A stretch of 64,000 nt of DNA from the NCBI RefSeq assembly GCF_036898465.1, contig NZ_JARUMJ010000001.1:868001-932000 (forward strand), in the 5' to 3' direction. Both the position numbers and the translations under genes were made by a program. Source of the DNA: Streptomyces sp. B21-105. Its GTDB lineage: Bacteria; Actinomycetota; Actinomycetes; Streptomycetales; Streptomycetaceae. This document shows, piece by piece, positions 51,720 through 64,000 of this stretch (positions are counted from its first letter, which is position 1; each line of letters begins with the position of its first letter). A model generated the notes under the pieces. The model was not told where the DNA came from. It worked only from the letters and a program-made list of their open reading frames with translations, and did no database searches.

Positions 51720-53108
51720 TCAGCCTATGGCGCGCAACATGCCTCGCGCGCGACGGTCCAGTTCGGCGACGTGGAGACCACCGCGCTGCCGGACGGGCGA
51801 GATGTCGCTCTGCATGCGGACGATGACGTCGCGGGCTCGCCCGGACTGGATACCGGCCATGGCGTCGAGTGCTTCGTTCCAGGTCGCGCATGCCTCGTCG
51901 AGGCGTCCCTGCTGGACTTGGACTGCGCCGAGGTAGCCGAGGGTCACGCTGTGGGTACGGGCGAACTGCTGGCGTCGGCGCGTGGCCACGCTGCGCTTGA
52001 AGTGGATCTCCGCGTCGCGAGGCTGGCCCATGTCGCGCAGAGCGCAGGCCGTCTCGTGGGCGAGGGAGGCTTCCTGGAAAAAGCCGACGCGGGCCGGTGC
52101 CTCGGTGGCGTCGGCGCGGGCGAGGTCCCGCTCCGCGCGGCTAATGGCCGCGAGGGTGCCGGCCCGGTCGCCATCGGACGCGAGGGCGCGTGCATGGACG
52201 ATCGCCAGCAGCGCCTTTTCACGATGGCTGGCCTGGCCGTAGCGGTCGCGGGACATCGAGGCGTCGGCCAGGGCCAGCGCCCGGCGTGGATGCCCGAGGT
52301 CCACGGCCTGGTGGGCGAGGGCGCGCAGGACATGACCACCGAGCGGTCCGTCTCCCGCTTCCGCCGCGATGCGGGCGGCAATGGTGAGGTAGCGCTGAGC
52401 AGTGCGGTGTTCACTGGCGTCGAAGGCCATCCAACCGGCGAGGTAAGTCATCTCCGCCACGGCGGAGTACGTGTCGCGGCGAAGCTGATCTGTACGGAAT
52501 CGGCCGCCAAGCAGCGGTACCGCACCGTCGAGCAGGTGGCTGGCGAGGGCCTTGCGGCCGGATGCGCCGCCTCGCTGCTGGTCGCGCGCGGAGTAGTAGA
52601 CCGTGAGGTCGCGGACGTCGTCGACGTCGGCCTGAGTCACCGGGCGCGAGGAGGCCGGTCGGCGGTTCGTCGCTGCAGCGGGGGCGGCTGCCCACCACGA
52701 GGTTGTGGGCAGGGCAAGGCCGACCGCGGAGTAGGCGGCGGTGGCCAGCAGCTTGCGTCGGTGCATGTCGAGATCGTCGCTTCCCAGCTCGGCCAGTGCG
52801 GTCAGAGGGTCGACGCTCCAGTCGGATCCGGTGTCGGTCGTGCCTGTCGGCGCTTCTTCCAGCCCGAGGTCGGCCAGGGAGAGGCGGCGGCCGAGTCTGC
52901 GGGACAGCGTCTCGCGCAGGATATGCGGCGCTCTGCCACTCGGCTTCGTGCCGAGCACCCACATGGAGATGTGCGAGCGGGAGATCGCCTCCAGCTCGCG
53001 CACTCCGCACTCCGCGGCCACGCGGGCAACAGCGGCGGCTGCTTGCGGCTGGGACCAGCCTGCTTCGCGCAGGAGTGCGGCGAGGGCGACGTTTCGTTCA
53101 CGGGCCAT
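51720..53108 (-). CDS. XRE-like regulator with TPR domain
   Basis: 462 residues. The N-terminal HTH-like domain (ALAALLREAGWSQPQAAAAV, ISRSHISMWVLGTKPS) is followed by an RRKLLATAAYSAVGLALP segment and long TPR-like helices to about residue 440. The architecture parallels the 49202-50443 gene but the sequence is clearly different. It is probably a DNA-binding regulator with a helical sensor. It is divergent, across 189 nt, from the operon that starts at 53298 and is the nearest candidate regulator of it. Confidence 0.8.
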   Translation of the reverse strand: MARERNVALAALLREAGWSQPQAAAAVARVAAECGVRELEAISRSHISMWVLGTKPSGRAPHILRETLSRRLGRRLSLADLGLEEAPTGTTDTGSDWSVDPLTALAELGSDDLDMHRRKLLATAAYSAVGLALPTTSWWAAAPAAATNRRPASSRPVTQADVDDVRDLTVYYSARDQQRGGASGRKALASHLLDGAVPLLGGRFRTDQLRRDTYSAVAEMTYLAGWMAFDASEHRTAQRYLTIAARIAAEAGDGPLGGHVLRALAHQAVDLGHPRRALALADASMSRDRYGQASHREKALLAIVHARALASDGDRAGTLAAISRAERDLARADATEAPARVGFFQEASLAHETACALRDMGQPRDAEIHFKRSVATRRRQQFARTHSVTLGYLGAVQVQQGRLDEACATWNEALDAMAGIQSGRARDVIVRMQSDISPVRQRGGLHVAELDRRARGMLRAIG

Positions 53109-53297: not shown

Positions 53298-53795
53298 ATG
53301 CGCCTTTCGCTGGACCCTCACCGAGACGGCAGCCAGCCCGTGGGAGAGCGCGGGCGGCGAGCGCCCGTCACTGAGGCGCCGGCGCCGACGCGCGATCACG
53401 TGGTGGCCACGTTGGAGACGGTGACGCTGGTGCTGGGCGAGGATTCGCCACTGCCCGACAGCGCTGCCGATGTGGAGGACCTCGTTCGCCTTCTGCGCGG
53501 CCACGTTGCCCAGTTGGGCGCACAGACCGCTCCCGGGATTCCCGCCCTGCTGCGCGCGCAGCGGCTCTGCTCCGACAGCGTCCCCGAGGGCTACATGCCG
53601 AGCCGGGTGTACCTGGTCAGGCTCGCCGAGGCCACCCAGGAGCTGATGGCACACGTGGAACGCGGCGGTCCCGGGCCGATCAGCGTGCAGGGCGGGCGGC
53701 GTTGGCGGAAGCCCACGGTCAACGTGCTGCGCGGGGCCGTCTTCGCCCTCGCCCTGGCCTGCCTGGTCTTCGCCGCTTCGGTGCCGCGGACATGA
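53298..53795 (+). CDS. DUF6415-like protein with C-terminal membrane anchor
   Basis: 165 residues from ATG 53298 with CAGGAG upstream. The helical domain (DHVVATLETVTLVLGED, DVEDLVRLLRGHVAQLG, GYMPSRVYLVRLAEATQELM) matches the Streptomyces DUF6415 pattern. It ends in one hydrophobic segment (VFALALACLVFAASV), so it is probably a tail-anchored membrane protein. It is the first gene of the co-directional run and overlaps the next gene by 4 nt. Confidence 0.65.
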   Translation: MRLSLDPHRDGSQPVGERGRRAPVTEAPAPTRDHVVATLETVTLVLGEDSPLPDSAADVEDLVRLLRGHVAQLGAQTAPGIPALLRAQRLCSDSVPEGYMPSRVYLVRLAEATQELMAHVERGGPGPISVQGGRRWRKPTVNVLRGAVFALALACLVFAASVPRT

Positions 53796-54097
53796 CGGTG
53801 ACCGGCGCCGTCGTCATCGCTTTGATCCTCGGGCCGACGGCCTGGCTGGTGCTTCGCGGCGAGCGGGCGGCCGGCCCTGCACGAGCCGTCGAGGACCTGC
53901 CGCCGCCCGGCAACGGTCCCCCTCACCCCGGTGACCACCGACCTGCCTTCTACCCACCGTTCCCGGCCGCTGCGGCGGCCCCGAAACCACCCCGGACCCG
54001 CGGGGCTCACGGAGATCCACACGATGAAACGGCTTCCGCGCATCGAGCAGTACGGCCTGATCGGCGACATGCAGACCAGCGCCCACGTCTGCGATGA
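53792..54097 (+). CDS. Small membrane protein
   Basis: 101 residues from ATG 53792, overlapping the previous stop (ATGA). An N-terminal transmembrane helix (TVTGAVVIALILGPTAWLVL, about 2-21) precedes a Pro-rich soluble tail. The last 74 nt overlap the GH15 gene in another frame, so the tail beyond about residue 77 may be coincidental. Function unknown. Confidence 0.5.
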   Translation: MTVTGAVVIALILGPTAWLVLRGERAAGPARAVEDLPPPGNGPPHPGDHRPAFYPPFPAAAAAPKPPRTRGAHGDPHDETASAHRAVRPDRRHADQRPRLR

Positions 54098-55868
54098 CGG
54101 TTCGATCGACTGGCTGTGCCTGCCCCGCTTCGACTCGTCGGCCCCGTTCGCGGCCCTGCTCGGTTCGGAGAAGCACGGGGCATGGCGCGTAGCCCCCGCC
54201 GCCGCCTGCCAGGAGGGCGCCGCGGTGAGCGCCGAGCGGCGCTATGTCGGCGAGTCCCTCGTGTTGGAGACGGTGTGGACGACCTCCTCCGGCAGCGTGA
54301 CGGTCACCGACTTCATGCCGCCGCGCAACGGAGCGCCGCAGGTGATCCGGATCGTGGAAGGCACGGCCGGTCAGGTCTCCATGGTGTCCGCGCTGCGCGC
54401 CCGCCCGGGGTACGGCCGCATCAGTCCGTGGGTCCATGAGGTGGGCGGACGCATGGTGGCCGAGGGCGGCGAGGACGCGCTGTGGCTGGACACGGCCACC
54501 GAGCAGCGGGAGAAGGACGGGGCGATCGTGGGTTCCTTCACGGTCGCCGTCGGCGACAGCGTGGCCTTCGTGCTGAGCTGGAGTCCGTCCCACGGCTGCG
54601 CGCCCGAGATCCCTGAGCCCGAGGCGGCGCTGGAGGCGACCCTGGCGTTCTGGGAAGACTGGGCGAGCCAGTGCACCTACACCGGGCCCTACCGCGACGC
54701 TGTCCTCCGCTCGCTCATCACCTTGAAGGCGATGACGTACGCGCCCAGCGGGGGTATCGTCGCCGCGCCGACCACGTCGCTGCCCGAGGAACTCGGCGGC
54801 GAACGGAACTGGGACTACCGCTACACCTGGCTGCGCGACGCCTCCACCACCCTGGCCGCACTGCTCGGGTCCGGCTTCCGCCAGGAGGCCGACTCCTTCC
54901 GCCGGTGGCTCCTGCGGGCGGCGGCCGGCGATCCGGAGAACCTGCAGATCATGTACGGCATCACCGGCCAGCGGGACCTGTCGGAGCGGGAGTTGGGATG
55001 GCTGCCCGGATACGAGAACTCGTCACCGGTCCGGATCGGCAACGGCGCGGCCGACCAGGTGCAGCTCGACGTCTACGGCTACGTGATCGAGACCCTCTAC
55101 CTCGCGCACGCGAGCGGCGTCGCACCGTGCGGGGACACCGCGGTCCTCCACCAGCGGCTCGTTGAACACCTGGCCGAGCGGTGGCAGATGCCCGACGAGG
55201 GGATCTGGGAAGTCCGCGGAGAGCGGCGGCACTTCGTCCACTCCAAGATCATGACCTGGGTGGCCGTCGACCGCACCATCCGCCTGGTCGAGGCCGGCGC
55301 CATGGAAGCCGACCTGTTCGCGCTGATCGAGCTGCGCGAGGCCATCCACCACGACGTGTGCACCCGCGGGTTCGACGCCGAGCGCAACACGTTCACCCAG
55401 TCCTACGGATCGCAGGAGGTTGATGCCGCCCTGCTGCTGATCCCCCGGGTGGGCTTCCTACCGCCGGACGACCCGCGCGTGGTCGGAACGGTGGAAGCGG
55501 TGCGCCGGGATCTGTCCACCCCCGAGGGCTTCGTGCACCGGTACCGGACCGCCGGGAAGCGCACCGGGATCGACGGCCTGACCGGTAACGAGGGGACCTT
55601 CCTCCTCTGCTCGTTCATGATGGTCGACGCGCTCGCCCTGACCGGCCGCCTGGACGAAGCCCACGCCCTGTTCAGCCGACTGCTGGCCCTGCGCACCGAC
55701 CTCGGCCTGCTCGCCGAGGAGTACGACCCCACCACCGGGCGGCAGCTGGGCAACTTCCCGCAGGCGTACAGCCACATCGGGGTCATCGGATCCGCGCTCC
55801 TGCTGCAGCAGTTCGGCGCGGGTGCGCCTGCGGCGGAGGCGGACGTCCTCGTGGCGGCGAGTGCCTGA
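54024..55868 (+). CDS. GH15 family trehalase/glucoamylase-like enzyme
   Basis: 614 residues from ATG 54024 (GGAGA upstream). The N-terminal beta-domain includes IEQYGLIGDMQTSAHVCDDG and DWLCLPRFDS. The (alpha/alpha)6 catalytic part has GGERNWDYRYTWLRDAS (about 257), ELGWLPGYENSSPV, FVHSKIMTWVAVDR and NEGTFLLCSF. These are the actinobacterial GH15 signatures, and family members include mycobacterial trehalase. Expected reaction: hydrolysis of trehalose or a related alpha-glucoside. No signal peptide, so cytoplasmic. Its stop codon overlaps the cvnA start by 1 nt, tying it to the signalling operon. Confidence 0.9.
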   Translation: MKRLPRIEQYGLIGDMQTSAHVCDDGSIDWLCLPRFDSSAPFAALLGSEKHGAWRVAPAAACQEGAAVSAERRYVGESLVLETVWTTSSGSVTVTDFMPPRNGAPQVIRIVEGTAGQVSMVSALRARPGYGRISPWVHEVGGRMVAEGGEDALWLDTATEQREKDGAIVGSFTVAVGDSVAFVLSWSPSHGCAPEIPEPEAALEATLAFWEDWASQCTYTGPYRDAVLRSLITLKAMTYAPSGGIVAAPTTSLPEELGGERNWDYRYTWLRDASTTLAALLGSGFRQEADSFRRWLLRAAAGDPENLQIMYGITGQRDLSERELGWLPGYENSSPVRIGNGAADQVQLDVYGYVIETLYLAHASGVAPCGDTAVLHQRLVEHLAERWQMPDEGIWEVRGERRHFVHSKIMTWVAVDRTIRLVEAGAMEADLFALIELREAIHHDVCTRGFDAERNTFTQSYGSQEVDAALLLIPRVGFLPPDDPRVVGTVEAVRRDLSTPEGFVHRYRTAGKRTGIDGLTGNEGTFLLCSFMMVDALALTGRLDEAHALFSRLLALRTDLGLLAEEYDPTTGRQLGNFPQAYSHIGVIGSALLLQQFGAGAPAAEADVLVAASA

Positions 55869-57328
55869 TGAACACGCTCGCCATCACCACACTCGTCCTG
55901 CTCACCCTCGCGGCCGTCGTCGCCGTGGCAGCGGTCTGGGTCACCCGTCGCCGCTGGCTCGCGGCACGGCAGCAGGCACTTCTCCTGGCCCGCGAGCAGC
56001 AGGCCACCGAGCAGGCTCTGGACCGGCTGGTCCACGAGGTGCTGCCGCAGATCCACAAGGTCGGCGGCCGGGCTGCTCCGCCTGTTCTGTCGCCGGAGCT
56101 GACCGGCACCGCGGTCGGCGAGCGGCTGGAGCTCGCGGTCAAGGCCACCGCCGGCCTCGCCCAGGCCATCGTCCGTGACATCCAGTACGCCGCGCACCAG
56201 GAGATCGAACAGGTCAAAACGCGCGGAGCGGAGGAGCTGCGCCGTGCGCACACCGACGCGCAAGCGCAGATCGCCCGCGTGCAGGCGAACGCCGTGCGGT
56301 CGACCGAGGCCGCGGTGCGCAGCGTGTCTTCGGCGCTGGTGGGAATGGCCGCCCGGACCAGCCGCAGGGTCAGCGAGGGGGTCCGGGCGCACCAGGACGA
56401 CGCCGCCTTCGAGACGCTGACCGGGATCGACCGCACCGTCCAGCAGACGCTGCTGGTCGCGCAGGGCTGGACGGTCCTGGCCGGCGGCAAGCTGACCCGG
56501 CACTGGACCACCACGACCCTGACCGATGTGGTGCGGGCCGCGATGGGCTACGTCGAGGACTACCAGCGCGTGGCACCGCAGGAGCTGCCCCTCGCGGTGA
56601 AGACCCGTGTCGTCGGGCCCGTAGTGCACACCCTCGCCCTCCTGCTGGACAACGCGCTGCGGTTCTCCCCGCCGCAGTCCCGCGTCCACGTCTCCTTCGA
56701 GCAGGGCCACCACGGGGTCACCGTCATCGTGGACGACAGCGGCCTGCAGATGACGCCGGAGCAGCTCGACGAGGCACGGGACGTCCTCACCGGCCAGCGC
56801 ACCGACGACATCACGCAGCTCGGCGCCCTGCCCAAAACCGGTTTCCGGGTCGCCGCCGCTCTCGCTCGCGCCTACGGCTTCCGGGTCGACGTCCAGGCCC
56901 CCAACGCGCTGCTGGGCACCCGCGCGCTCCTCACCCTGCCCCAGGACCTCCTCACCACCGTGGCCGAGGCCGCACCCGCACCCGCGCTGTCGGCGGACAG
57001 CGTCCCGCAAGGCGCGCTCGCCCCCGTCCCGGAGAGCCGCCTGGCACTGGCCCCGCCCGCGCGAGGACCGCAGCCCGTCGCCGTACCGGCACACCCGCCG
57101 GCAGAGGAGCGCCTCGATGCGCCGGCCGCTGCCGGGACGACGGCCAGCGGGCTGACGCGGCGCAACCGGCGCGGCACCCCGGCACCTGCTCCAGCCCGCC
57201 GCCCGGCCAATGCGGAGCCGGGACGCGCGAGCGTGATCGCCTCCTGGGCCCGCGGCACCCAGGCGGCACGCGCCGAACTTGACGCCGCCCCCTCCCTGAC
57301 CCCTGACGAGCAAGGACACGAGGCATGA
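55868..57328 (+). CDS. cvnA: Conservon kinase-like CvnA, short form (second conservon)
   Basis: 486 residues. One N-terminal transmembrane helix (about 5-25) is followed directly by a cytoplasmic coiled-coil-like stretch (about 30-190, rich in Ala/Gln/Glu/Arg). A HATPase region follows with N-box LLLDNALRFSPPQSRV (about 259), DDSGLQMTP and TGFRVAAALARAYG, then a Pro/Ala-rich tail. Unlike the first conservon's CvnA it has no extracytoplasmic sensor domain and no H-box. The input may therefore come from a partner protein. Start and stop overlap the neighbouring genes. Confidence 0.85.
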   Translation: MNTLAITTLVLLTLAAVVAVAAVWVTRRRWLAARQQALLLAREQQATEQALDRLVHEVLPQIHKVGGRAAPPVLSPELTGTAVGERLELAVKATAGLAQAIVRDIQYAAHQEIEQVKTRGAEELRRAHTDAQAQIARVQANAVRSTEAAVRSVSSALVGMAARTSRRVSEGVRAHQDDAAFETLTGIDRTVQQTLLVAQGWTVLAGGKLTRHWTTTTLTDVVRAAMGYVEDYQRVAPQELPLAVKTRVVGPVVHTLALLLDNALRFSPPQSRVHVSFEQGHHGVTVIVDDSGLQMTPEQLDEARDVLTGQRTDDITQLGALPKTGFRVAAALARAYGFRVDVQAPNALLGTRALLTLPQDLLTTVAEAAPAPALSADSVPQGALAPVPESRLALAPPARGPQPVAVPAHPPAEERLDAPAAAGTTASGLTRRNRRGTPAPAPARRPANAEPGRASVIASWARGTQAARAELDAAPSLTPDEQGHEA

Positions 57329-57735
57329 GCGAGAAGAACATCGGCTGGTTCCTGGAGCGCCTGGAGGAGACCGACGGCGTGGAGTACGCCGTGCTCGTCG
57401 CGGCCGACGGCATGAGCCCGGACTACACGCCCCGCCTCCCGCAGGAGCAGGCGGAGAAGATCGCCGCCATCACCTCGACGCTGTGGGCGGCGTCACGGGC
57501 CTACGACCACGAGACCGGCGGCGGGGGCGTGCGCCAGTTCGTCATGGAGTCGGTCGACCACATCTCCCTGCTCGTCCCGGCCGGGGAGAACACGATGCTC
57601 GCCGTCCGCACCAGCAGCCCCAACGTCGACGTCGGCGTGATCAGCGAGGCCGCCCTGCGGCTGGCGGGAAGCGTCGGCGATCATCTGGGCGTCAAGACCC
57701 GGGTGACCAGCGGCGTGGAAGCACCGCCGGCATGA
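57325..57735 (+). CDS. cvnB: Conservon roadblock/LC7 protein CvnB (second conservon)
   Basis: 136 residues. Roadblock/LC7 fold: NIGWFLERLEETDGVEYAVL, ADGMSPDYT, EKIAAITSTLWAASRAYD, VRQFVMESVDHISLLVPAGE and TMLAVRTSSP. Overlaps cvnA (ATGA) and cvnC (ATGA). It should regulate the CvnD GTPase. Confidence 0.93.
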   Translation: MSEKNIGWFLERLEETDGVEYAVLVAADGMSPDYTPRLPQEQAEKIAAITSTLWAASRAYDHETGGGGVRQFVMESVDHISLLVPAGENTMLAVRTSSPNVDVGVISEAALRLAGSVGDHLGVKTRVTSGVEAPPA

Positions 57736-58088
57736 GCAGGCCGCGGCAGGATCCCGACCTGGTCAGGCCCTACGTCCGCACGGGCGGACGTACCCGCCCC
57801 AGCACGGACGTGCGTCTGGAGAGCGTGGTCTTCGCCGCGACCGGCACACACCCCGGACTTAATGCCGACGGACGCCGCCTGCTGGCTCTGTTCGCCGGCT
57901 CCCGCGGCGGCGGTCTGGCCGTCGCCGAGATCGCCTCCGAACTCGCTCTGCCGCCCTCGACCACCCGCATCCTCGTCGCCGACCTCATCGGACTCGGGCT
58001 GATGACCCTCGCCCAGGCCCACGACGCCGAACGCCCTCCCGCCTCACTGATCGAAAGGGTCCTTCATGGCCTCCGCGCTCACGCCTGA
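57732..58088 (+). CDS. cvnC: Conservon DUF742 protein CvnC (second conservon)
   Basis: 118 residues. DUF742 markers are DPDLVRPYVRTGGRTRPSTD, LALFAGSRGGGLAVAEIASE, LPPSTTRILVADLIGLGLMT and a final LIERVLHGLRAHA. Shorter than its paralogue in the first conservon. It overlaps cvnD by 23 nt. Confidence 0.92.
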   Translation: MSRPRQDPDLVRPYVRTGGRTRPSTDVRLESVVFAATGTHPGLNADGRRLLALFAGSRGGGLAVAEIASELALPPSTTRILVADLIGLGLMTLAQAHDAERPPASLIERVLHGLRAHA

Positions 58089-58656
58089 CCGGTTCGTCGC
58101 GCCGACGGTGACGGCGACCGCGAAGATCGTGGTCGCCGGAGCCTTCGGCGTGGGCAAGACCACGTTCGTCGGCAGCGTCTCCGAAGTGCCGCCCGTGCAC
58201 ATGGAAGAGACCATCACCCGGGCCAGCGCTCTGGTCGACGACCTGGCCCGCACGCCGGAGAAGTCCACCACCACCGTCGGCGTCGACTTCGGGCGCAAGC
58301 ACCTCGGCGACGACCTGGTGCTGTACCTGTTCGGCACCCCGGGCCAGGCCCGGTTCCGGTTCCTGTGGGAGGAGCTGATCGTCGGCGCCCTCGGCGCCCT
58401 GGTCCTGGTCGACCCCCGCGACCTCGATGCCTCCCACGAGATCCTCACCCTCCTCGAAGAGGCCGAAGTGGCGTACGCGGTCGCGGTCAACCAGTTCGAC
58501 GGCGCACCCCTCTACCCGCTCGCCGAGATCCACGAGGCGCTCGTCCTGGAGGGAAACACCCCGCTGAGCGTGTGCGACGCCCGCGAGCGGGCGTCGTGCA
58601 TGCAGGCCCTGATCCAGCTCACCGAATACCTCGCACGTCTGGAGCCCCGACCGTGA
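58066..58656 (+). CDS. cvnD: Conservon GTP-binding protein CvnD (second conservon)
   Basis: 196 residues. P-loop GAFGVGKTT (about 25-33), TTTVGVDFGR, G3-like LFGTPGQARFRFLWEEL and VAVNQFDGAP as the diverged G4. Overlaps cvnC upstream and the P450 gene downstream (GTGA), so all five genes are likely translated together. It is probably the switch that connects CvnA-C to the P450s. Confidence 0.93.
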   Translation: MASALTPDRFVAPTVTATAKIVVAGAFGVGKTTFVGSVSEVPPVHMEETITRASALVDDLARTPEKSTTTVGVDFGRKHLGDDLVLYLFGTPGQARFRFLWEELIVGALGALVLVDPRDLDASHEILTLLEEAEVAYAVAVNQFDGAPLYPLAEIHEALVLEGNTPLSVCDARERASCMQALIQLTEYLARLEPRP

Positions 58657-59831
58657 GCACCGCGCCCCTTCGCATCTCCCTGTACGAGCCGGACTTCGCC
58701 CAAGACCCGCACGCCTTCTACCGGCGTATGCGCGAGCAGTTCGGTCCCCTGGTCCCGGTGGACCTGGCGCCCGGCGTGCCCGCCACGCTGGTCGTCGGCT
58801 ATGAGGCGGCCCGCCGTATCCTCGGCGACCCGCAGCGCTTCCCTGCCGACCCGCGCCGGTGGCAGACCACCGTCCCGGACGCCTGCCCCATCCGGCCGAT
58901 GATGGAGTACCGGCCCAACGCGCTGCGCTCCGCCGGCGCCGAGCACGCCCGCTACCGGGCCGCGAACACCGCCGCGTTGCAGGCCGTCGACCAGCACGCG
59001 CTGCGCGATCACGTCGAGGAGGTCGCTGCCCAGACCATCAGCGTCTTCGCTGCCGAGGGGAAGGCCGACCTGCTGGCCCAGTACGCCTGGCCGCTCGCCT
59101 TCAACACGCTCAGCCACCTGCTCGGCTGCCCCGACGAGGTCGGGCGACGGATCGCGGACGGCATGTCCAAGATCTTCGACGGGGTCAACGCCTCCATCGG
59201 CAACCAGATCCTCGCCCAAGCCGTCACCGACCTCGTCTCCCGGCGCCGGGCGCATCCCGGCGACGACGTGACCAGCAGGCTCCTCGTCCACGTCGCGCGG
59301 CTGAACGACATGGAGATGGGCCAGCAGCTCATCACCCTCTACGGCGCGGGCATCGAACCGCTGACCAACCTGATCACCAACACCCTCCTGGAGATGCTCA
59401 CCAACCCGGATTTCTCCGGGGACCTGCACGCCGGCGACGCCTCCGTCCGCGAAGCCCTGGACACGGTGCTGTACCGCGACCCCCCGCTCGCGAACTTCTC
59501 CATGAGCTACCCGCCCCGGCCTGCCGACGTCGGCGGCTACCTGCTCCCGGCCGACGAGCCGGTGGTCATCAGCTACGCCGCCTGCAACAACGACCCCGAT
59601 CTCGGCGGGCGCACGCCGCTGGGCAACCGCGCCCACCTCGCCTGGGGCGCTGGCCCGCACAGCTGCCCGGCCAGCTCTCACGCCTACCTCATCGCCGAGG
59701 CCGCCATCCTCCACATCCTCGACGCCCTGCCCGAAATGGACCTCGCCACCCGCCGCGAGGACCTCACCTGGCGCCCCGGCCCCTTCCACCGGTCCCTGGT
59801 GACCCTCCCGGTCACCTTCCCCACCAGCTGA
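58653..59831 (+). CDS. CYP157-like cytochrome P450 lacking ExxR
   Basis: 392 residues from GTG 58653. P450 features include the heme-ligand loop AHLAWGAGPHSCPASSHAYL (Cys retained) and an I-helix LYGAGIEPLTNLI in which the usual AGxxT is spread apart. The K-helix region reads REALDTVLYRDPPLANFSMS: where nearly all P450s have ExxR this protein has none. The same loss is known for the Streptomyces CYP157 family, which sits in conservons beside CYP154 enzymes (established knowledge). Catalysis, if any, or a structural/regulatory role remains open. Confidence 0.88.
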   Translation: MSTAPLRISLYEPDFAQDPHAFYRRMREQFGPLVPVDLAPGVPATLVVGYEAARRILGDPQRFPADPRRWQTTVPDACPIRPMMEYRPNALRSAGAEHARYRAANTAALQAVDQHALRDHVEEVAAQTISVFAAEGKADLLAQYAWPLAFNTLSHLLGCPDEVGRRIADGMSKIFDGVNASIGNQILAQAVTDLVSRRRAHPGDDVTSRLLVHVARLNDMEMGQQLITLYGAGIEPLTNLITNTLLEMLTNPDFSGDLHAGDASVREALDTVLYRDPPLANFSMSYPPRPADVGGYLLPADEPVVISYAACNNDPDLGGRTPLGNRAHLAWGAGPHSCPASSHAYLIAEAAILHILDALPEMDLATRREDLTWRPGPFHRSLVTLPVTFPTS

Positions 59832-59844
59832 AAGAGACCCCGAC

Positions 59845-61077
59845 GTGCCCGAACAGCAGATACTCGTCCTCGACCCCACCGGCAGCGACCCGGACGCCGA
59901 ACACCAGGCCCTGCGCGAGCGCGGCCCCGCCACCCTCGTGGACATCCTCGGCGTGCGCGCCTGGTCCGTCTCCGACCCGGCTCTCCTGAAGGAACTGCTC
60001 ACCAGTAAGGACGTCTCCAAGGACGGCCGCGCCCACTGGCCGGCCTTCGCCGAGACCGTCCCCACCTGGCCGCTGGCCCTGTGGGTCGCGGTGGAGAACA
60101 TGTTCACCGCCTACGGCGCCAACCACAGCCGCCTGCGCCGCATGGTCGCCCCCGCCCTCTCCGCCCGCCGCACCGCCGCCCTCCAGACGGGCATCGAGAC
60201 CCTGGTCACCGGGCTGCTCGACGACCTCGACGCCCTCCCGGCCGGGGAAAGTTCCGACCTGCGCGAGCACCTCGCCTACCCGCTGCCGATCGCCGTCATC
60301 GGACAGCTCATGGGCGTCCCCGCCGACCAGCGCGCCGAGTTCCGCACCGTGGTCGACAACGTCTTCGCCACCCACCTCACCGCCGAGGAACAGGCGGCCA
60401 ACACCGCCGCCCTCTACGGCCTGCTGGACGCCCTCATCGCCACCAAGCGGACCAGGCCCGACGAGGACACGACCTCGCTGCTGATCGCCACCCGCGACGA
60501 GGAAGGCGACGGTTCCGCCCTCAGCGACGCCGAACTGCGCGACACGCTCCTGCTGATGATCAGCGCCGGGTACGAGACCACTGTCAACGTCATCGACCAG
60601 GCCCTCACCACCCTGCTGTCCGACCCGGAGCAGCTCGCCCACGTCCGGGACGGACGGTGCACCTGGCAGGACATCGTCGAGGAGACCCTGCGGCACGAGC
60701 CCGCGGTCAAGCACCTGCCCCTGCGCTACGCCCTCACCGACATCCCGCTCCCCGACGGGCAGACCATCCGGTCCGGCGACGCCGTCCTCGCCTCCTACGC
60801 CGCCGCCAACCGACACCCCGGCCTGCACCAGGACGCCGACCAGTTCGACGCCACCCGGATCAGCAAGGAGCACCTCGCCTTCGGGCACGGCGTCCACTTC
60901 TGCCTCGGTGCCCCGCTGGCCCGCCTCGAAGTCGCCACGGCACTGCGCCTGTTCTTCGAGCGCTTCCCCGACGCCCAGCTCGCCACCAAGCGCGAAGACC
61001 TGCAGCGCCTACCGAGCCTCATCAGCAACGGACACACCAGCGTCCCCGTCCTGCTGCGCCCCACGACGACCGACTGA
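59845..61077 (+). CDS. Cytochrome P450, CYP154-like, canonical
   Basis: 410 residues, ATG 59845, 13 nt after the first P450. All motifs are intact: I-helix ISAGYETTVNVI, K-helix ETLR (within VEETLRHEPAV) and heme loop FGHGVHFCLGAPLARLE. It matches CYP154-type enzymes that accompany CYP157 in conservons; members oxidise steroids, fatty acids or aromatic substrates in vitro. Electron donors are not encoded nearby. Physiological substrate unknown. Confidence 0.92.
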   Translation: MPEQQILVLDPTGSDPDAEHQALRERGPATLVDILGVRAWSVSDPALLKELLTSKDVSKDGRAHWPAFAETVPTWPLALWVAVENMFTAYGANHSRLRRMVAPALSARRTAALQTGIETLVTGLLDDLDALPAGESSDLREHLAYPLPIAVIGQLMGVPADQRAEFRTVVDNVFATHLTAEEQAANTAALYGLLDALIATKRTRPDEDTTSLLIATRDEEGDGSALSDAELRDTLLLMISAGYETTVNVIDQALTTLLSDPEQLAHVRDGRCTWQDIVEETLRHEPAVKHLPLRYALTDIPLPDGQTIRSGDAVLASYAAANRHPGLHQDADQFDATRISKEHLAFGHGVHFCLGAPLARLEVATALRLFFERFPDAQLATKREDLQRLPSLISNGHTSVPVLLRPTTTD

Positions 61078-61103
61078 CCGGCCCTCAACGAGGAATCCTT
61101 GCC

Positions 61104-61586
61104 ATGACCGCCCTCGCCCCAACACAGCCCCTCACCCCGTCCGAACAGCGCATCGCCCAGCACGTGATCAAGGGCCTGGACGCTCGCGAGATCGCAGCCG
61201 CCACCCAGCTCAAGCCGAACACCGTGCACTCCACGCTGCGCACCGTGCGATGGAAGCTGGCCTGTCCCGAACGCTGCTCCCTCGCCGTCGTCGCCCACCG
61301 TCTTCTCGACTCCGGCCAGGTCACCGCCCCGACACCGCCACGCCCCGCTCCGGATCTCAGCCCCGAGCAGATCAGCCTGCTCAAGGCCGCCGCCGAACAC
61401 ACCCTGCCCCGCGACATCGCCCTCGCCGCCGGCCTCGCCCCGGCCGACCTACGCGACGCACTCGACCAACTCCACGCCGCCACAGGAGCACAGGACACCA
61501 CCGAACTGGTGGTCCTGGCGCACAGCTGGCAGCTGCTACCGGCCGAGCAAGCCGCCCACGCGACGCGAAGCGGGGCAACCCAGTGA
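61104..61586 (+). CDS. Protein with two tandem LuxR/sigma4-like HTH units
   Basis: 160 residues, ATG 61104 after GAGGAA. The first unit (LTPSEQRIAQHVIKGLDARE, IAAATQLKPNTVHSTLRTVR, then WKLACPERCSLAVVAHRLLD) is a LuxR-type HTH. A second, diverged copy starts near residue 82 (LSPEQISLLKAAAEHTLPRD, IALAAGLAPADLRDALDQLH). No receiver or sensor domain is present. It may be a stand-alone DNA-binding regulator of this operon. The stop overlaps the next start (GTGA). Confidence 0.75.
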   Translation: MTALAPTQPLTPSEQRIAQHVIKGLDAREIAAATQLKPNTVHSTLRTVRWKLACPERCSLAVVAHRLLDSGQVTAPTPPRPAPDLSPEQISLLKAAAEHTLPRDIALAAGLAPADLRDALDQLHAATGAQDTTELVVLAHSWQLLPAEQAAHATRSGATQ

Positions 61587-62233
61587 CCCGCCCCACGACC
61601 CCCACGGCCAGCGAGGACCGGTCCGTCCCCGTCTCGTTCACGCAGACGCCGCCGGCCGCCATCTACGAGATGCGCATGCTGAGCACCGCGGCCGAGCGCG
61701 AGGAAGCCGCCGCCCTCGTCCAGGACCGCCAGCGCTGGCTCACCCTGCACAGCCTGCCCGTACCCGCCCGGGCCGACATCCCCGCGCAGTTCCGCGAGGC
61801 GCAGACCATGCCCGCCGGACTGTTCGAGGACGGGAGGCTGCTGGCCTGCATGATCCCCGAGCACGACCCCGACCTCGGATGGGCTCAGGGGCCGTGCCTC
61901 TTCCTCCACAGCGTCCACACCCTGCCCGGCCAGTCCGACGACATCACCCGCCTGATCACCCTGTGGGCGTCCGACTTCGCCGCCCGACTCGACCTCCCTG
62001 TCGTACGGGCCGAGACCCTGGCCCGCCACGCCCTCGAAGCCGAACCCCTCGCTGCCCTCCTGCGTCGGCTCACCGACACCGGCTGGGACGTGTGCGGATC
62101 CGGCTCCGGACGCGACGGTGATCGAGTTGCCCGCCTCGAACTCCCCGCCGAGCCCCGTCCCGGGCTCAGCGCGCTGATCAGCTGCCAGGTCCACGCGCCT
62201 CAGCAGGCCCCGGATGCTCGGAGCAACGCGTGA
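61583..62233 (+). CDS. GNAT acetyltransferase-like protein
   Basis: 216 residues from GTG 61583. The middle resembles a GNAT fold: YEMRMLSTAAEREEAAALVQ, GLFEDGRLLACMIPE, GPCLFLHSVHTLPGQ as strand 4/motif A region, then a helix (ITRLITLWASDFAARLDLPV). The canonical Q/RxxGxG/A loop is not obvious, so CoA binding is uncertain. Overlaps both neighbours (GTGA each side), hence part of the operon. Confidence 0.55.
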   Translation: MTRPTTPTASEDRSVPVSFTQTPPAAIYEMRMLSTAAEREEAAALVQDRQRWLTLHSLPVPARADIPAQFREAQTMPAGLFEDGRLLACMIPEHDPDLGWAQGPCLFLHSVHTLPGQSDDITRLITLWASDFAARLDLPVVRAETLARHALEAEPLAALLRRLTDTGWDVCGSGSGRDGDRVARLELPAEPRPGLSALISCQVHAPQQAPDARSNA

Positions 62234-62805
62234 CAACCGACGAACCGCAGCGGCCCGACCTCGCCCGCGAGCTGATCGCCCGCGCCACGGAATCGGCCGC
62301 ACACCGGGCCAAGCGCGTGCGCGACCAGCTCGACGCCGTCCAACTCGGACAAGGCCGGCACACCGACCACGCCAACACCAAGGTGCTGCGCCGCATCCTG
62401 GCCGACCACGACTGGCCCGGCCACCGCCTCGTCGGCCCCGACGCGGCCCGCGCCGCCTGGAGTATCGCCCTGCACAGCGACGACGAACCCGACTTCCAGC
62501 GCGCCGCCGCCACCCTGCTGGGACGTGCGGTCCAGGCCGGCGACGCACTGGTCCAACACTGGGCGCACCTGCACGACCGCACCCTCATCACCAGCGGGCG
62601 AGACCAGGAGTACGGCACCCAGCTCCTGCTGCGCGCCGACGGCATCGAACTGTGCCCGCTGCGCGCGCCGGAGTCAGTCGACGCACGCAGGGCCACCGTC
62701 GGTCTGCCGCCGATCGCCGTCGCGCTGAAGACAGTGCGCCGCCGGTACACCCCCTACGGCTCTGCCGATGAGGCCCCGACCGTCGTCCTCGCGGGGGCCG
62801 CGTGA
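62230..62805 (+). CDS. DUF6624 family protein
   Basis: 191 residues from GTG 62230. The pattern WPGHRLVGPDAARAAWSIAL (about 60-79), DEPDFQRAAATLLGRAVQAG, LHDRTLITSGRDQEYGTQLL and SVDARRATVGLPPIA is that of DUF6624. This family is seen across bacteria and often near biosynthetic or toxin-like loci. No known activity. It overlaps the preceding gene by 4 nt. Confidence 0.75.
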   Translation: MTTDEPQRPDLARELIARATESAAHRAKRVRDQLDAVQLGQGRHTDHANTKVLRRILADHDWPGHRLVGPDAARAAWSIALHSDDEPDFQRAAATLLGRAVQAGDALVQHWAHLHDRTLITSGRDQEYGTQLLLRADGIELCPLRAPESVDARRATVGLPPIAVALKTVRRRYTPYGSADEAPTVVLAGAA

Positions 62806-62879
62806 AGAAGCGGAACCCCAAGTTCTCGACCAGTCGGTCTCACGGCCGCAACTCCGCTCTTCGAAAGGATCGTTGACGC

Positions 62880-63347
62880 ATGAAGCTCACCACCGCCGTT
62901 CTCGCTGCCGGTGTTGCAGTCTCCCTCACCACCGCCATGGTCGGAGCGGCCCGGCTCCGGCAGGACGCACGACACCAGGCCGAGCGAAACGAGGCGCTGC
63001 TCGCGGGCAACCAGATCGACTGGCTGGCGCAGATGTCCACCAATCCCGATCTCGCCAAGCTCTGGAAGCCGGAGGACATGGAGGCCGAGGAGTACATGCA
63101 GCTCATGTCGGCCAACCGGCTCATCTGCGCGCTCAGTCTGCGCGACCGCCTCGGCTTCGTCCCGAAGGGGCACCTGCCCTTCTTCGCGGCCTGGATCATG
63201 AAGAGCGACGTCAGCCGACGGTACTGGAAGCGGTTCGGTGACCTCCGCGCCCAGGAGGCCGAGGGAGACGAGCGCGCCGAGCGGTTCACGAACGCTCTGG
63301 ACCGGGCCGCTCAAGCCCGTTCGCACGAACACACCGCAGCCGCCTGA
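62880..63347 (+). CDS. DUF6082-like membrane-anchored protein
   Basis: 155 residues from ATG 62880 (AAAGGA upstream). An N-terminal transmembrane or signal-anchor helix (TTAVLAAGVAVSLTTAMVGA) is followed by QIDWLAQMSTNPDLAKLWKP, EAEEYMQLMSANRLICALSL and a late SRRYWKRFGDLRAQ. This matches the Streptomyces DUF6082 pattern. Function unknown. It is the third small membrane-anchored protein of this gene run. Confidence 0.65.
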   Translation: MKLTTAVLAAGVAVSLTTAMVGAARLRQDARHQAERNEALLAGNQIDWLAQMSTNPDLAKLWKPEDMEAEEYMQLMSANRLICALSLRDRLGFVPKGHLPFFAAWIMKSDVSRRYWKRFGDLRAQEAEGDERAERFTNALDRAAQARSHEHTAAA

Positions 63348-63386
63348 AGAAGAGGCTGCCTCGCCCTCAACTCGTGAAGGAACTCC

Positions 63387-63797
63387 GTGGACTTCAGTGC
63401 TGTTCCACTACCGCCCGGCGACTTCACCATCGGGAAGACGTTCAACTTCGAGGCTGGCCACCGGCTTCCCGGGCTGCCGGACGAGCACAAGTGCTCGCGC
63501 CAGCACGGGCACAGCTACGAGGTCGAGGTCATCCTCACCGCACCCTCGCTGGAGGAGCCCGGCTTCGTCGCCGACTTCGGGGCGCTCGCTCCGTTCAAAG
63601 AGTTCCTGAACACCGAACTCGACCATTACAACCTGCACGAGATTCTTCCCTTCGAGCCGACCTCGGAGCGCCTGGCCCAGTTCCTGGCCGGGTGGTTCCT
63701 CCAGAACCTTCAGCCCGCCATCCCCGGCCGCCTGGTCGCCGTCCTGGTCCGCGAGACCCAGAGCAGCTGGGCCCGCTTCGATGTGGAGGGACGGTGA
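63387..63797 (+). CDS. queD: 6-carboxytetrahydropterin synthase (QueD)
   Basis: 136 residues from GTG 63387. The zinc-binding histidines are present in FEAGHRLPG (first His) and CSRQHGHSYEVEV (Cys nucleophile and two His). Also visible are FVADFGALAPFK, LDHYNLHEI and the C-terminal VLVRETQSSWARF with catalytic Glu. It converts dihydroneopterin triphosphate to 6-carboxy-tetrahydropterin, the first committed step to preQ0 and 7-deazaguanines. Overlaps queE (GTGA). Confidence 0.93.
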   Translation: MDFSAVPLPPGDFTIGKTFNFEAGHRLPGLPDEHKCSRQHGHSYEVEVILTAPSLEEPGFVADFGALAPFKEFLNTELDHYNLHEILPFEPTSERLAQFLAGWFLQNLQPAIPGRLVAVLVRETQSSWARFDVEGR

Positions 63798-64000
63798 CCG
63801 CATTCGAGCCGATCACCGACGAACCGACGGCTGACGAAGGCGAATCCCGCCTGATCGTCGCGGAGTGCTTCGGCGTCGAGGTACCGACCTTCCAGGGCGA
63901 GGGACCGAGCTGCGGACACCCGGCGCTGTTCATCCGCCTGTCCCGGTGCAACCTCACCTGCGCGAAATGCGACACGAAGTACACCTGGGACTGGTCCCAG
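63794..64000 (+). CDS. queE: 7-carboxy-7-deazaguanine synthase (QueE), 5' part
   Basis: First 69 residues from GTG 63794; the rest lies outside the window. The radical-SAM cluster motif CxxxCxxC is seen as CNLTCAKCD, preceded by FQGEGPSCGHPALFIRLSR, the typical QueE substrate/SAM region. It converts carboxytetrahydropterin to 7-carboxy-7-deazaguanine. Linked queC or folE genes would be expected beyond the edge. Confidence 0.92.
   Translation, partial: MTAFEPITDEPTADEGESRLIVAECFGVEVPTFQGEGPSCGHPALFIRLSRCNLTCAKCDTKYTWDWSQ

What the first reader, a model, noticed from the sequence alone, without database searches (positions are those of the whole stretch)
53298..64000. One co-directional run joins a GH15 enzyme, a conservon, two P450s and preQ0 genes
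Fourteen genes follow each other on the plus strand. Nine of the thirteen junctions overlap, eight of them by 1-23 nt; the 53792/54024 pair overlaps by 74 nt. The remaining gaps are 13, 26, 74 and 39 nt. Conservons with CYP157/CYP154 are known in Streptomyces. A trehalase-like GH15 gene fused translationally to cvnA and a 7-deazaguanine pathway at the 3' end is not a layout I know. It suggests a G-protein-like switch controlling oxidation of a deazapurine- or sugar-derived product.
Basis: partly seen in the sequence, partly recalled or inferred. Interest (0 to 1): 0.72.

Follow-up and report, generated by a model that had tools for sequence, protein, structure and literature searches.

The report
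Conservon-led island with swappable biosynthetic cargo
In this Streptomyces genome a known type of G-protein-like switch sits, together with a sugar-enzyme gene, in front of genes for a guanine-like compound, and relatives carry the same front part before different product genes, so the neighbourhood looks like a regulated slot whose contents are exchanged.

Summary
The run is real, as described, and continues past the window to 22 same-strand genes (53298-70229). It is two modules, not one pathway. Header: GH15 gene, conservon with CYP157/CYP154A-type P450s, LuxR-type gene, three small genes. Cargo: queD-queE-folE plus TGT-fold, nucleoside-phosphorylase-fold, kinase-like, methyltransferase and NUDIX genes. 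It is not a full preQ0 pathway: no true QueC was found in this genome. Of 27 loci anchored on this GH15 subgroup (392 Streptomyces genomes), 23 have a conservon directly downstream, of two distinct lineages; 8 have queD/queE/folE and 13 a LanB lanthipeptide dehydratase behind the header; 6 show neither. Eight of the 13 and 4 of the 8 share a right-hand NUDIX gene. No conservon was seen near g17 in 27 of 27 non-streptomycete loci, within the flanks held. The published Cvn8 locus (glycosyl hydrolase upstream of cvnA8; adjacent lan cluster repressed) is the closest precedent. Best reading: a conservon-controlled island with exchangeable cargo, here probably derived from 7-carboxy-7-deazaguanine. 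That the switch controls deazapurine oxidation is not supported.

The parts
51720..53108 (-). g0: divergent gene at the left border of the header (regulator-like by my reading; not searched against families)
   Evidence: Open frame; orthologues 83-98% identical on the minus strand in most header loci, 53% in G095
53298..53795 (+). g1: DUF6415 protein
   Evidence: PF19979 8.7e-8; DUF6415 genes also precede queD on plasmids L147 and L149, named 'natural product biosynthesis protein' there
53792..54097 (+). g2: small protein without family, overlaps GH15 start by 74 nt
   Evidence: No Pfam; protein-level hits 46-93% in relatives other than G107
54024..55868 (+). g3: GH15 (trehalase-like) enzyme of the header subgroup
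   Evidence: PF00723 7.4e-89, PF19291 4.5e-17; subgroup in 27 of 392 genomes
55868..57328 (+). g4: CvnA-like kinase, one N-terminal hydrophobic segment, no sensor domain found
   Evidence: PF02518 2.8e-8 only; hydropathy
57325..57735 (+). g5: CvnB-like roadblock protein
   Evidence: PF03259 6e-16
57732..58088 (+). g6: CvnC-like DUF742 protein
   Evidence: PF05331 1.5e-26
58066..58656 (+). g7: CvnD-like small GTPase, lineage I
   Evidence: PF03029 2.5e-23; CvnD tree
58653..59831 (+). g8: CYP157-like P450 (CvnE type), ExxR site reads T-V-L-Y
   Evidence: PF00067 3.1e-8; pairwise alignment with g9; the name CYP157 is by motif and place, not by a family search
59845..61077 (+). g9: CYP154A-type P450
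   Evidence: CYP154A1 structure 1odo, 3e-183
61104..61586 (+). g10: LuxR/GerE-type helix-turn-helix protein
   Evidence: PF00196 1.3e-7
61583..62233 (+). g11: header protein, no Pfam family
   Evidence: conserved in header loci
62230..62805 (+). g12: DUF6624 protein
   Evidence: PF20329 1.4e-21
62880..63347 (+). g13: DUF6082 protein, last header gene; cargo starts after it
   Evidence: PF19560 3.8e-13
63387..63797 (+). g14: QueD-like, first cargo gene
   Evidence: PF01242 6.3e-26; TIGR03367 7e-22, below its cut-off
63794..64000 (+). g15: QueE-like radical SAM enzyme, continues to 64540 outside the window
   Evidence: phrog_2076 3.9e-52; NCBIfam QueE models 2.3e-24 at best, below cut-offs

Best explanation
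The run is the left part of a chromosomal island with a recurrent header and an exchangeable cargo. Header: GH15 enzyme, an actinobacterial G-protein system (conservon) with its accessory proteins, a LuxR-type protein and three small genes. Cargo here: a QueC-less 7-deazaguanine module. FolE, QueD and QueE would make 7-carboxy-7-deazaguanine (CDG); a TGT-fold enzyme, a nucleoside-phosphorylase-fold enzyme, a kinase-like protein, a methyltransferase and NUDIX hydrolases would turn it into a modified nucleoside or nucleotide. The conservon most likely senses a cytosolic cue through its P450 accessory and sets expression of the adjacent cargo, as Cvn8 does for its neighbouring lan cluster. Shown here: gene content, recurrence of the header, two conservon lineages at one place, several cargos at one place, no true QueC, the two predicted folds. 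Inferred: CDG as intermediate, enzyme roles, regulation of the cargo by this conservon, role of GH15.
Against: No expression data for this locus. Cargo labels are clustered on the header trees (fewer changes than any of 200 shuffles), so exchange is not free. On the GH15 tree conservon type changes only 3 times, so the conservon swap rests on few events. Counts are not independent: G107 is nearly identical to G000. Six of 27 loci show neither cargo; G110 and G225, read 32-33 kb, have que genes but neither g17 nor the right-hand NUDIX genes, and 0 of 6 full-LanB loci have the latter. The QueC model's weak hits lie just over its cut-off of 22 bits, and L017 encodes a distant QueC-like protein in G000, though G107 with the same cargo shows only one hit, of 23.1 bits. 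hhalign finds no sequence-level match of g17 to E. coli Tgt; four of five g17 models were poor; QueD/QueE score below NCBIfam cut-offs.
Confidence: 0.66

Rival explanations
1. One dedicated pathway: GH15 releases a sugar, the P450s oxidise it or a deazapurine, and the que genes supply the base, all co-regulated by the conservon.
For: Tight co-directional packing; same order in G107 and G110, and from g3 on in L048.
Against: Of 13 collection loci with que genes and a conservon, 12 have GAF + acyl-CoA dehydrogenase genes and no P450 pair there; the same header stands before LanB genes in 13 of 27 anchors; no conservon was seen near g17 in 27 of 27 non-streptomycete loci within the flanks held.
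Confidence: 0.12
2. Neighbourhood without function: an accessory-gene hotspot in which header and cargo lie side by side by chance and by shared descent.
For: The cargo is mobile (plasmids L147-L149) and G110 breaks into other-strand and conjugation-like genes after folE (by reading).
Against: The same header end (after g13) meets several cargos, and the same right border returns in two cargo types; in the 199-genome sample a conservon lies within about 11 kb of g17 in 6 of 7 genomes, not all independent, against 13 roadblock-domain places in 9.2 Mb of the own genome.
Confidence: 0.17
3. The que cargo is a nucleic-acid modification system (the TGT-fold enzyme inserts CDG or a derivative into DNA or RNA), not a small-molecule pathway.
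For: TGT fold, with DpdA (7ui4) among the Foldseek hits; QueE scores best with a phage family and has phage relatives at about 40% identity; a phage lacking only QueC was said to be possibly modified by CDG (PMC6884629, passage).
Against: No dpdB-K-type family among the cargo genes scanned and no PADLOC hit for g17 or g18; the nucleoside-phosphorylase fold, kinase-like and NUDIX genes suit monomers; the related header locus G225 has a phosphoribosyltransferase and no g17 hit.
Confidence: 0.3

Closest known systems
S. coelicolor Cvn8 system and its adjacent lan cluster (PMC8510531, PMC13343842; passages and sections)
   Same: cvnA-D operon, glycosyl hydrolase directly upstream of cvnA8, a biosynthetic cluster adjacent, CvnA without sensor domain plus an accessory type. 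Lineage-II loci match closely: CvnA of 505 aa with H183 in L035, GAF accessory in L063, LanB cargo in others.
   Different: The window has a lineage-I conservon with P450s instead of GAF, and a 7-deazaguanine cargo instead of lanthipeptide genes. No S. coelicolor sequence was compared.
CYP157/CYP154 conservons of Streptomyces (PMC3599690, passages)
   Same: CYP157-like protein without ExxR next to a CYP154A-like protein (1odo) behind cvnD.
   Different: Here the conservon sits inside the GH15 header and before que genes. That it corresponds to S. coelicolor cvn10 is recalled, not tested.
Tubercidin (tub) cluster (PMC6112128, passages)
   Same: CPH4 synthase, radical SAM protein, GTP cyclohydrolase I, NUDIX hydrolase; CDG used directly; no QueC among the genes of the passage's table.
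   Different: No phosphoribosyltransferase or UbiD decarboxylase found in the window's cargo; TGT-fold and phosphorylase-fold proteins instead. G225 has a phosphoribosyltransferase variant.
dpd DNA-modification islands / phage DpdA systems (PMC11888242, PMC6884629; passages)
   Same: 7-deazaguanine synthesis genes beside a TGT-fold protein.
   Different: No QueC, no dpdB-K-type family among the cargo genes scanned; g17 is only 275 aa.

Membership tests
Conservon / actinobacterial G protein system | cvnA-B-C-D in order: HATPase, roadblock, DUF742, small GTPase | tested here: met
Conservon / actinobacterial G protein system | P450 (CvnE) or GAF (CvnF) accessory goes with a CvnA lacking a sensor domain | tested here: met
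   P450s g8/g9; CvnA with one hydrophobic segment and HATPase as only Pfam family; rule from PMC13343842 section 6
Cvn8-type locus | Glycosyl hydrolase directly upstream of cvnA | tested here: met
   GH15 g3, 1-nt overlap; description in PMC8510531
Cvn8-type locus | GAF-domain accessory CvnF and adjacent lan cluster | tested here: not met
   Two P450s and que genes instead; lineage-II loci have GAF, and LanB in 13 of 18 lineage-II anchors
preQ0 pathway | FolE, QueD, QueE | tested here: met
   Domain hits; QueD and QueE below, FolE above an NCBIfam cut-off
preQ0 pathway | QueC in cluster or genome | tested here: not met
   Own genome only 25.8 and 23.1 bits (cut-off 22): by reading a distant 443-aa protein and GuaA; 6 of 7 g17 genomes at most 27.4 bits
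tRNA-guanine transglycosylase superfamily (g17) | TGT-type barrel fold | tested here: met
tRNA-guanine transglycosylase superfamily (g17) | Sequence-level match and catalytic aspartates | tested here: inconclusive
   hhalign with E. coli Tgt found nothing; D60 and D211 invariant in 23 sequences, their equivalence to TGT aspartates is only my reading of motifs
dpd island | dpdB/dpdC and dpdD-K type genes beside dpdA | tested here: not met
   Pfam of g14-g24 and PADLOC of eight of them; the rest of the genome was not searched for dpd genes
Tubercidin-type cluster | CDG phosphoribosyltransferase and UbiD decarboxylase | tested here: not met
   No such domain among g14-g24; g25 not scanned; phosphoribosyltransferase present in G225

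The most novel reading that the evidence does not exclude
Streptomyces hold a dedicated chromosomal slot in which one conservon-led header controls interchangeable antibiotic-like cassettes, and one of the cassettes is an undescribed QueC-less system, spread over actinobacteria and carried on plasmids, in which a TGT-fold enzyme, working with a nucleoside-phosphorylase-fold enzyme and a nucleotide kinase, makes a CDG-based nucleotide or nucleic-acid modification.
Probability: 0.3. Interest if true: 0.78.

Novelty: new variant of a known kind. Interest (0 to 1): 0.56.

Why it matters
What conservons control, and how, is largely open. If the same header stands before different biosynthetic cassettes, comparison of strains gives a natural experiment: which header genes are needed for control whatever the cargo, and what the P450 versus GAF accessory changes. 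It also points to a QueC-less deazaguanine cassette in 42 actinobacterial loci, whose TGT-fold and phosphorylase-fold proteins are labelled hypothetical in the records I saw, as a source of a new nucleoside or nucleic-acid modification. For genome mining, the GH15-conservon header is a practical flag for uncharacterised clusters.

Tried and rejected
Considered and rejected: preQ0 as product (no true QueC); a GH15-CvnA fusion (two ORFs sharing one base); phage origin of the whole cassette (QueE has phage relatives at about 40% identity, but g17 has only weak partial hits in six Bacillus/Weizmannia phage records covering 28-36% of it; by fold it resembles some phage proteins, TM 0.74-0.77); a known defence system (PADLOC on ten proteins: weak pVip and VakA hits, and a mad2 methyltransferase-domain hit of 3.9e-13 for g21; none for g17, g18, g20, g24). 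Tried without useful result: PDB sequence searches for g17, g18 and GH15; hhalign of g17 with E. coli Tgt.

L044 begins at queD, L068 ends after g19, L066 lacks queD and g19 onward, L073 is a partial g17 without cassette. LanB calls rest on tblastn; one of the 13, G289, is only 37% identical to the query. G195 and G104 carry headers but are not among the 27 anchors. Literature: 'conservon'+'queuosine' and 'conservon'+'deaza' gave 0 papers; a broader search gave 162 papers with two of five terms, the 12 listed without 'conservon'. Only an open library was searched.
Full report
Observation. The window is C1:868001-932000 of a 9.2-Mb genome; the nearest named relatives of the cargo are Streptomyces. 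Reading past the edge, the co-directional run goes on with queE (63794-64540 in window numbering), folE (64598-65227), g17 (65224-66051), g18 (66048-67127), g19 thymidylate-kinase-like (67124-67816), g20 DUF2797-like (67853-68782), g21 methyltransferase (68779-69687; an ATG at 68842 is the alternative start) and g22 NUDIX (69684-70229). A minus-strand NUDIX gene (70250-70789) ends it. Further right lie g24 (no Pfam family), g25 (not scanned), an ABC transporter g26 and two multi-NUDIX genes g27 and g28.

Families. Pfam gives DUF6415, GH15 + trehalase-like N domain, HATPase, roadblock, DUF742, an ATP_bind_1/Ras-type GTPase, two P450s, GerE, DUF6624, DUF6082, QueD, radical SAM, FolE; g2, g11 and g17 have none. 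g9 is CYP154A-like (1odo, 3e-183). g8 aligns with g9 at 25%, and at the ExxR site reads TVLY where g9 reads ETLR; CYP157 proteins are reported to lack the motif (PMC3599690, passages). P450 and GAF proteins are the two published accessory types, CvnE and CvnF, found with CvnA proteins lacking a sensor domain (PMC13343842, sections 3, 6 and 15); the window's CvnA fits.

No QueC. In the own genome PF06508 gives 25.8 and 23.1 bits, just over the cut-off of 22. By reading the sequences these are a 443-aa distant relative and GuaA. Of seven genomes with g17, only G019 has a strong hit (211 bits), about 24 kb from its g17; the others have at most 27.4 bits. So the cargo should branch off at CDG. CDG as a direct substrate has a precedent in tubercidin (PMC6112128, passages).

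Header and conservon lineages. In 12 of the 43 collection loci (among them L033 and L063, the same records as G003 and G169) the place before g10 holds a different conservon, with a GAF gene and an acyl-CoA dehydrogenase gene in place of the P450s; one of the 43 (L048) has the window's type at 97-99%. CvnD of the two types is 47-50% identical. In the tree lineage I is one clade (SH-aLRT 98), apart from lineage II; deeper forks are weak. The own-genome paralogues match lineage II better than lineage I (11 of 11 entries besides the window's own). So this looks like replacement, not slow drift. The lineage-II CvnA has 505 aa with H183 in L035 (504 aa, H182 in L063), as described for CvnA8 (construct 81-505, H183), so I take lineage II as Cvn8-type; no S. 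coelicolor sequence was compared.

Header without que, and other cargo. GH15 as such is near-universal in the genus (198 of 199 genomes at 1e-150), but this subgroup is in 27 of 392. Of these 27 loci, 23 have a conservon directly downstream: lineage I in G000, G107, G110, G225, G390; lineage II in 18. Four lack it: G019, G149, G095, and G147 with a CvnB-like remnant. Cargo: QueD/QueE/FolE in 8 (G000, G107, G110, G225, G355, G279, G169, G095; G110 and G225 without a g17 hit), LanB in 13 (8 of a split type, 5 full-length, one of these, G289, only 37% identical to the query), neither seen in 6 (G390, G057, G147, G149, G019, and G099, whose contig ends). The LanB domain was checked by Pfam in four loci, one of them (G195) outside the 27. 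G225's cargo goes on with phosphoribosyltransferase, kinase-like, radical SAM and DegT genes, a second deazapurine-type cargo.

Right border. g28 is present in all 8 split-LanB loci, g27 in 7 of 8; both are in que loci G000, G107 and G355, and g27 in G169. G279 runs out of sequence there; G110, G225 (32-33 kb read) and G095 (21 kb read) show neither. None of six full-LanB loci (five anchors plus G195) shows them, two of these read only 17-19 kb.

Exchange. On the GH15 tree conservon type needs 3 changes and cargo 11 with 'other' as a state, or 7 for the three named cargos (23 rows) against a shuffled mean of 11.1. On a lineage-II header tree (CvnD + acyl-CoA dehydrogenase, 31 rows) cargo needs 8, shuffled mean 13.5; branches with SH-aLRT of 95 or more force at least 3 changes for que, 4 for split LanB, 3 for full LanB. 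So cargo has been exchanged several times, yet it is clustered, not random (0 of 200 shuffles as low). The conservon-que link is confined: CvnD hits in 13 of 16 streptomycete loci, 0 of 27 others, within the flanks held. Two further que loci have divergent GAF-type conservons beside them, G172 upstream without GH15 and G095 downstream.

Mechanism. Shown by others: Cvn8 represses the lan genes next to it, CvnF8 stimulates CvnA8, and a glycosyl hydrolase lies directly upstream of cvnA8 (PMC8510531, passages; PMC13343842, abstract, sections and passages). By position the window's conservon should do the same for the que cargo, with the CYP157-like protein as sensor or modulator. The effector is unknown; the linked LuxR-type g10 is a candidate (inference). 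The GH15 role is open. For the cargo I favour a CDG-derived nucleoside or nucleotide; a nucleic-acid modification remains a serious rival.

Novelty. Conservons, their P450s, the glycosyl-hydrolase/lan arrangement at cvn8 and QueC-less CDG pathways are known. New, as far as my searches of an open library tell (0 papers; none among the 12 listed), is the conservon-deazaguanine link and the exchange of cargo behind one header.

Noticed in passing
L098 and L097 (genomes G191, G130): Lineage-I conservon followed by a thymidylate-synthase-like gene in both, with glycosyltransferase-like, kinase-like and methyltransferase-like genes by reading: perhaps a third, pyrimidine-type cargo, without GH15 in G191.
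   Followed up: partly
L112 and L133 (genome G225): Lineage-I header with QueD, QueE, FolE, phosphoribosyltransferase, kinase-like, radical SAM and DegT genes: looks like an uncharacterised deazapurine nucleoside cluster.
   Followed up: partly
L016 4853-5782 (g20) and relatives in alignment A3: DUF2797-like family with invariant motifs suggestive of a GIY-YIG-type fold and four invariant cysteines; found in 40 of the 43 collection loci.
   Followed up: no
L049, L051, L053-L056, L058-L062, L064, L065, L072 and G019: Two adjacent QueD-like hits in tandem instead of one; apart from G019 these genera are, from recall, Pseudonocardiales.
   Followed up: no
L094/L095 (genome G110): Header plus QueD, QueE, FolE at 95-100% identity, then a break into minus-strand and conjugation-like genes (by reading); g17 onward was not found.
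   Followed up: partly
L017 1099-2430 (own genome): 443-aa protein with a QueC-like ATP-pyrophosphatase motif and a cysteine-rich segment, scored 25.8 bits by the QueC model; function unknown.
   Followed up: partly
L149 (NZ_CP107821): The que cargo lies on a 133-kb plasmid near a phage portal protein gene, so it may travel on a phage-plasmid.
   Followed up: no
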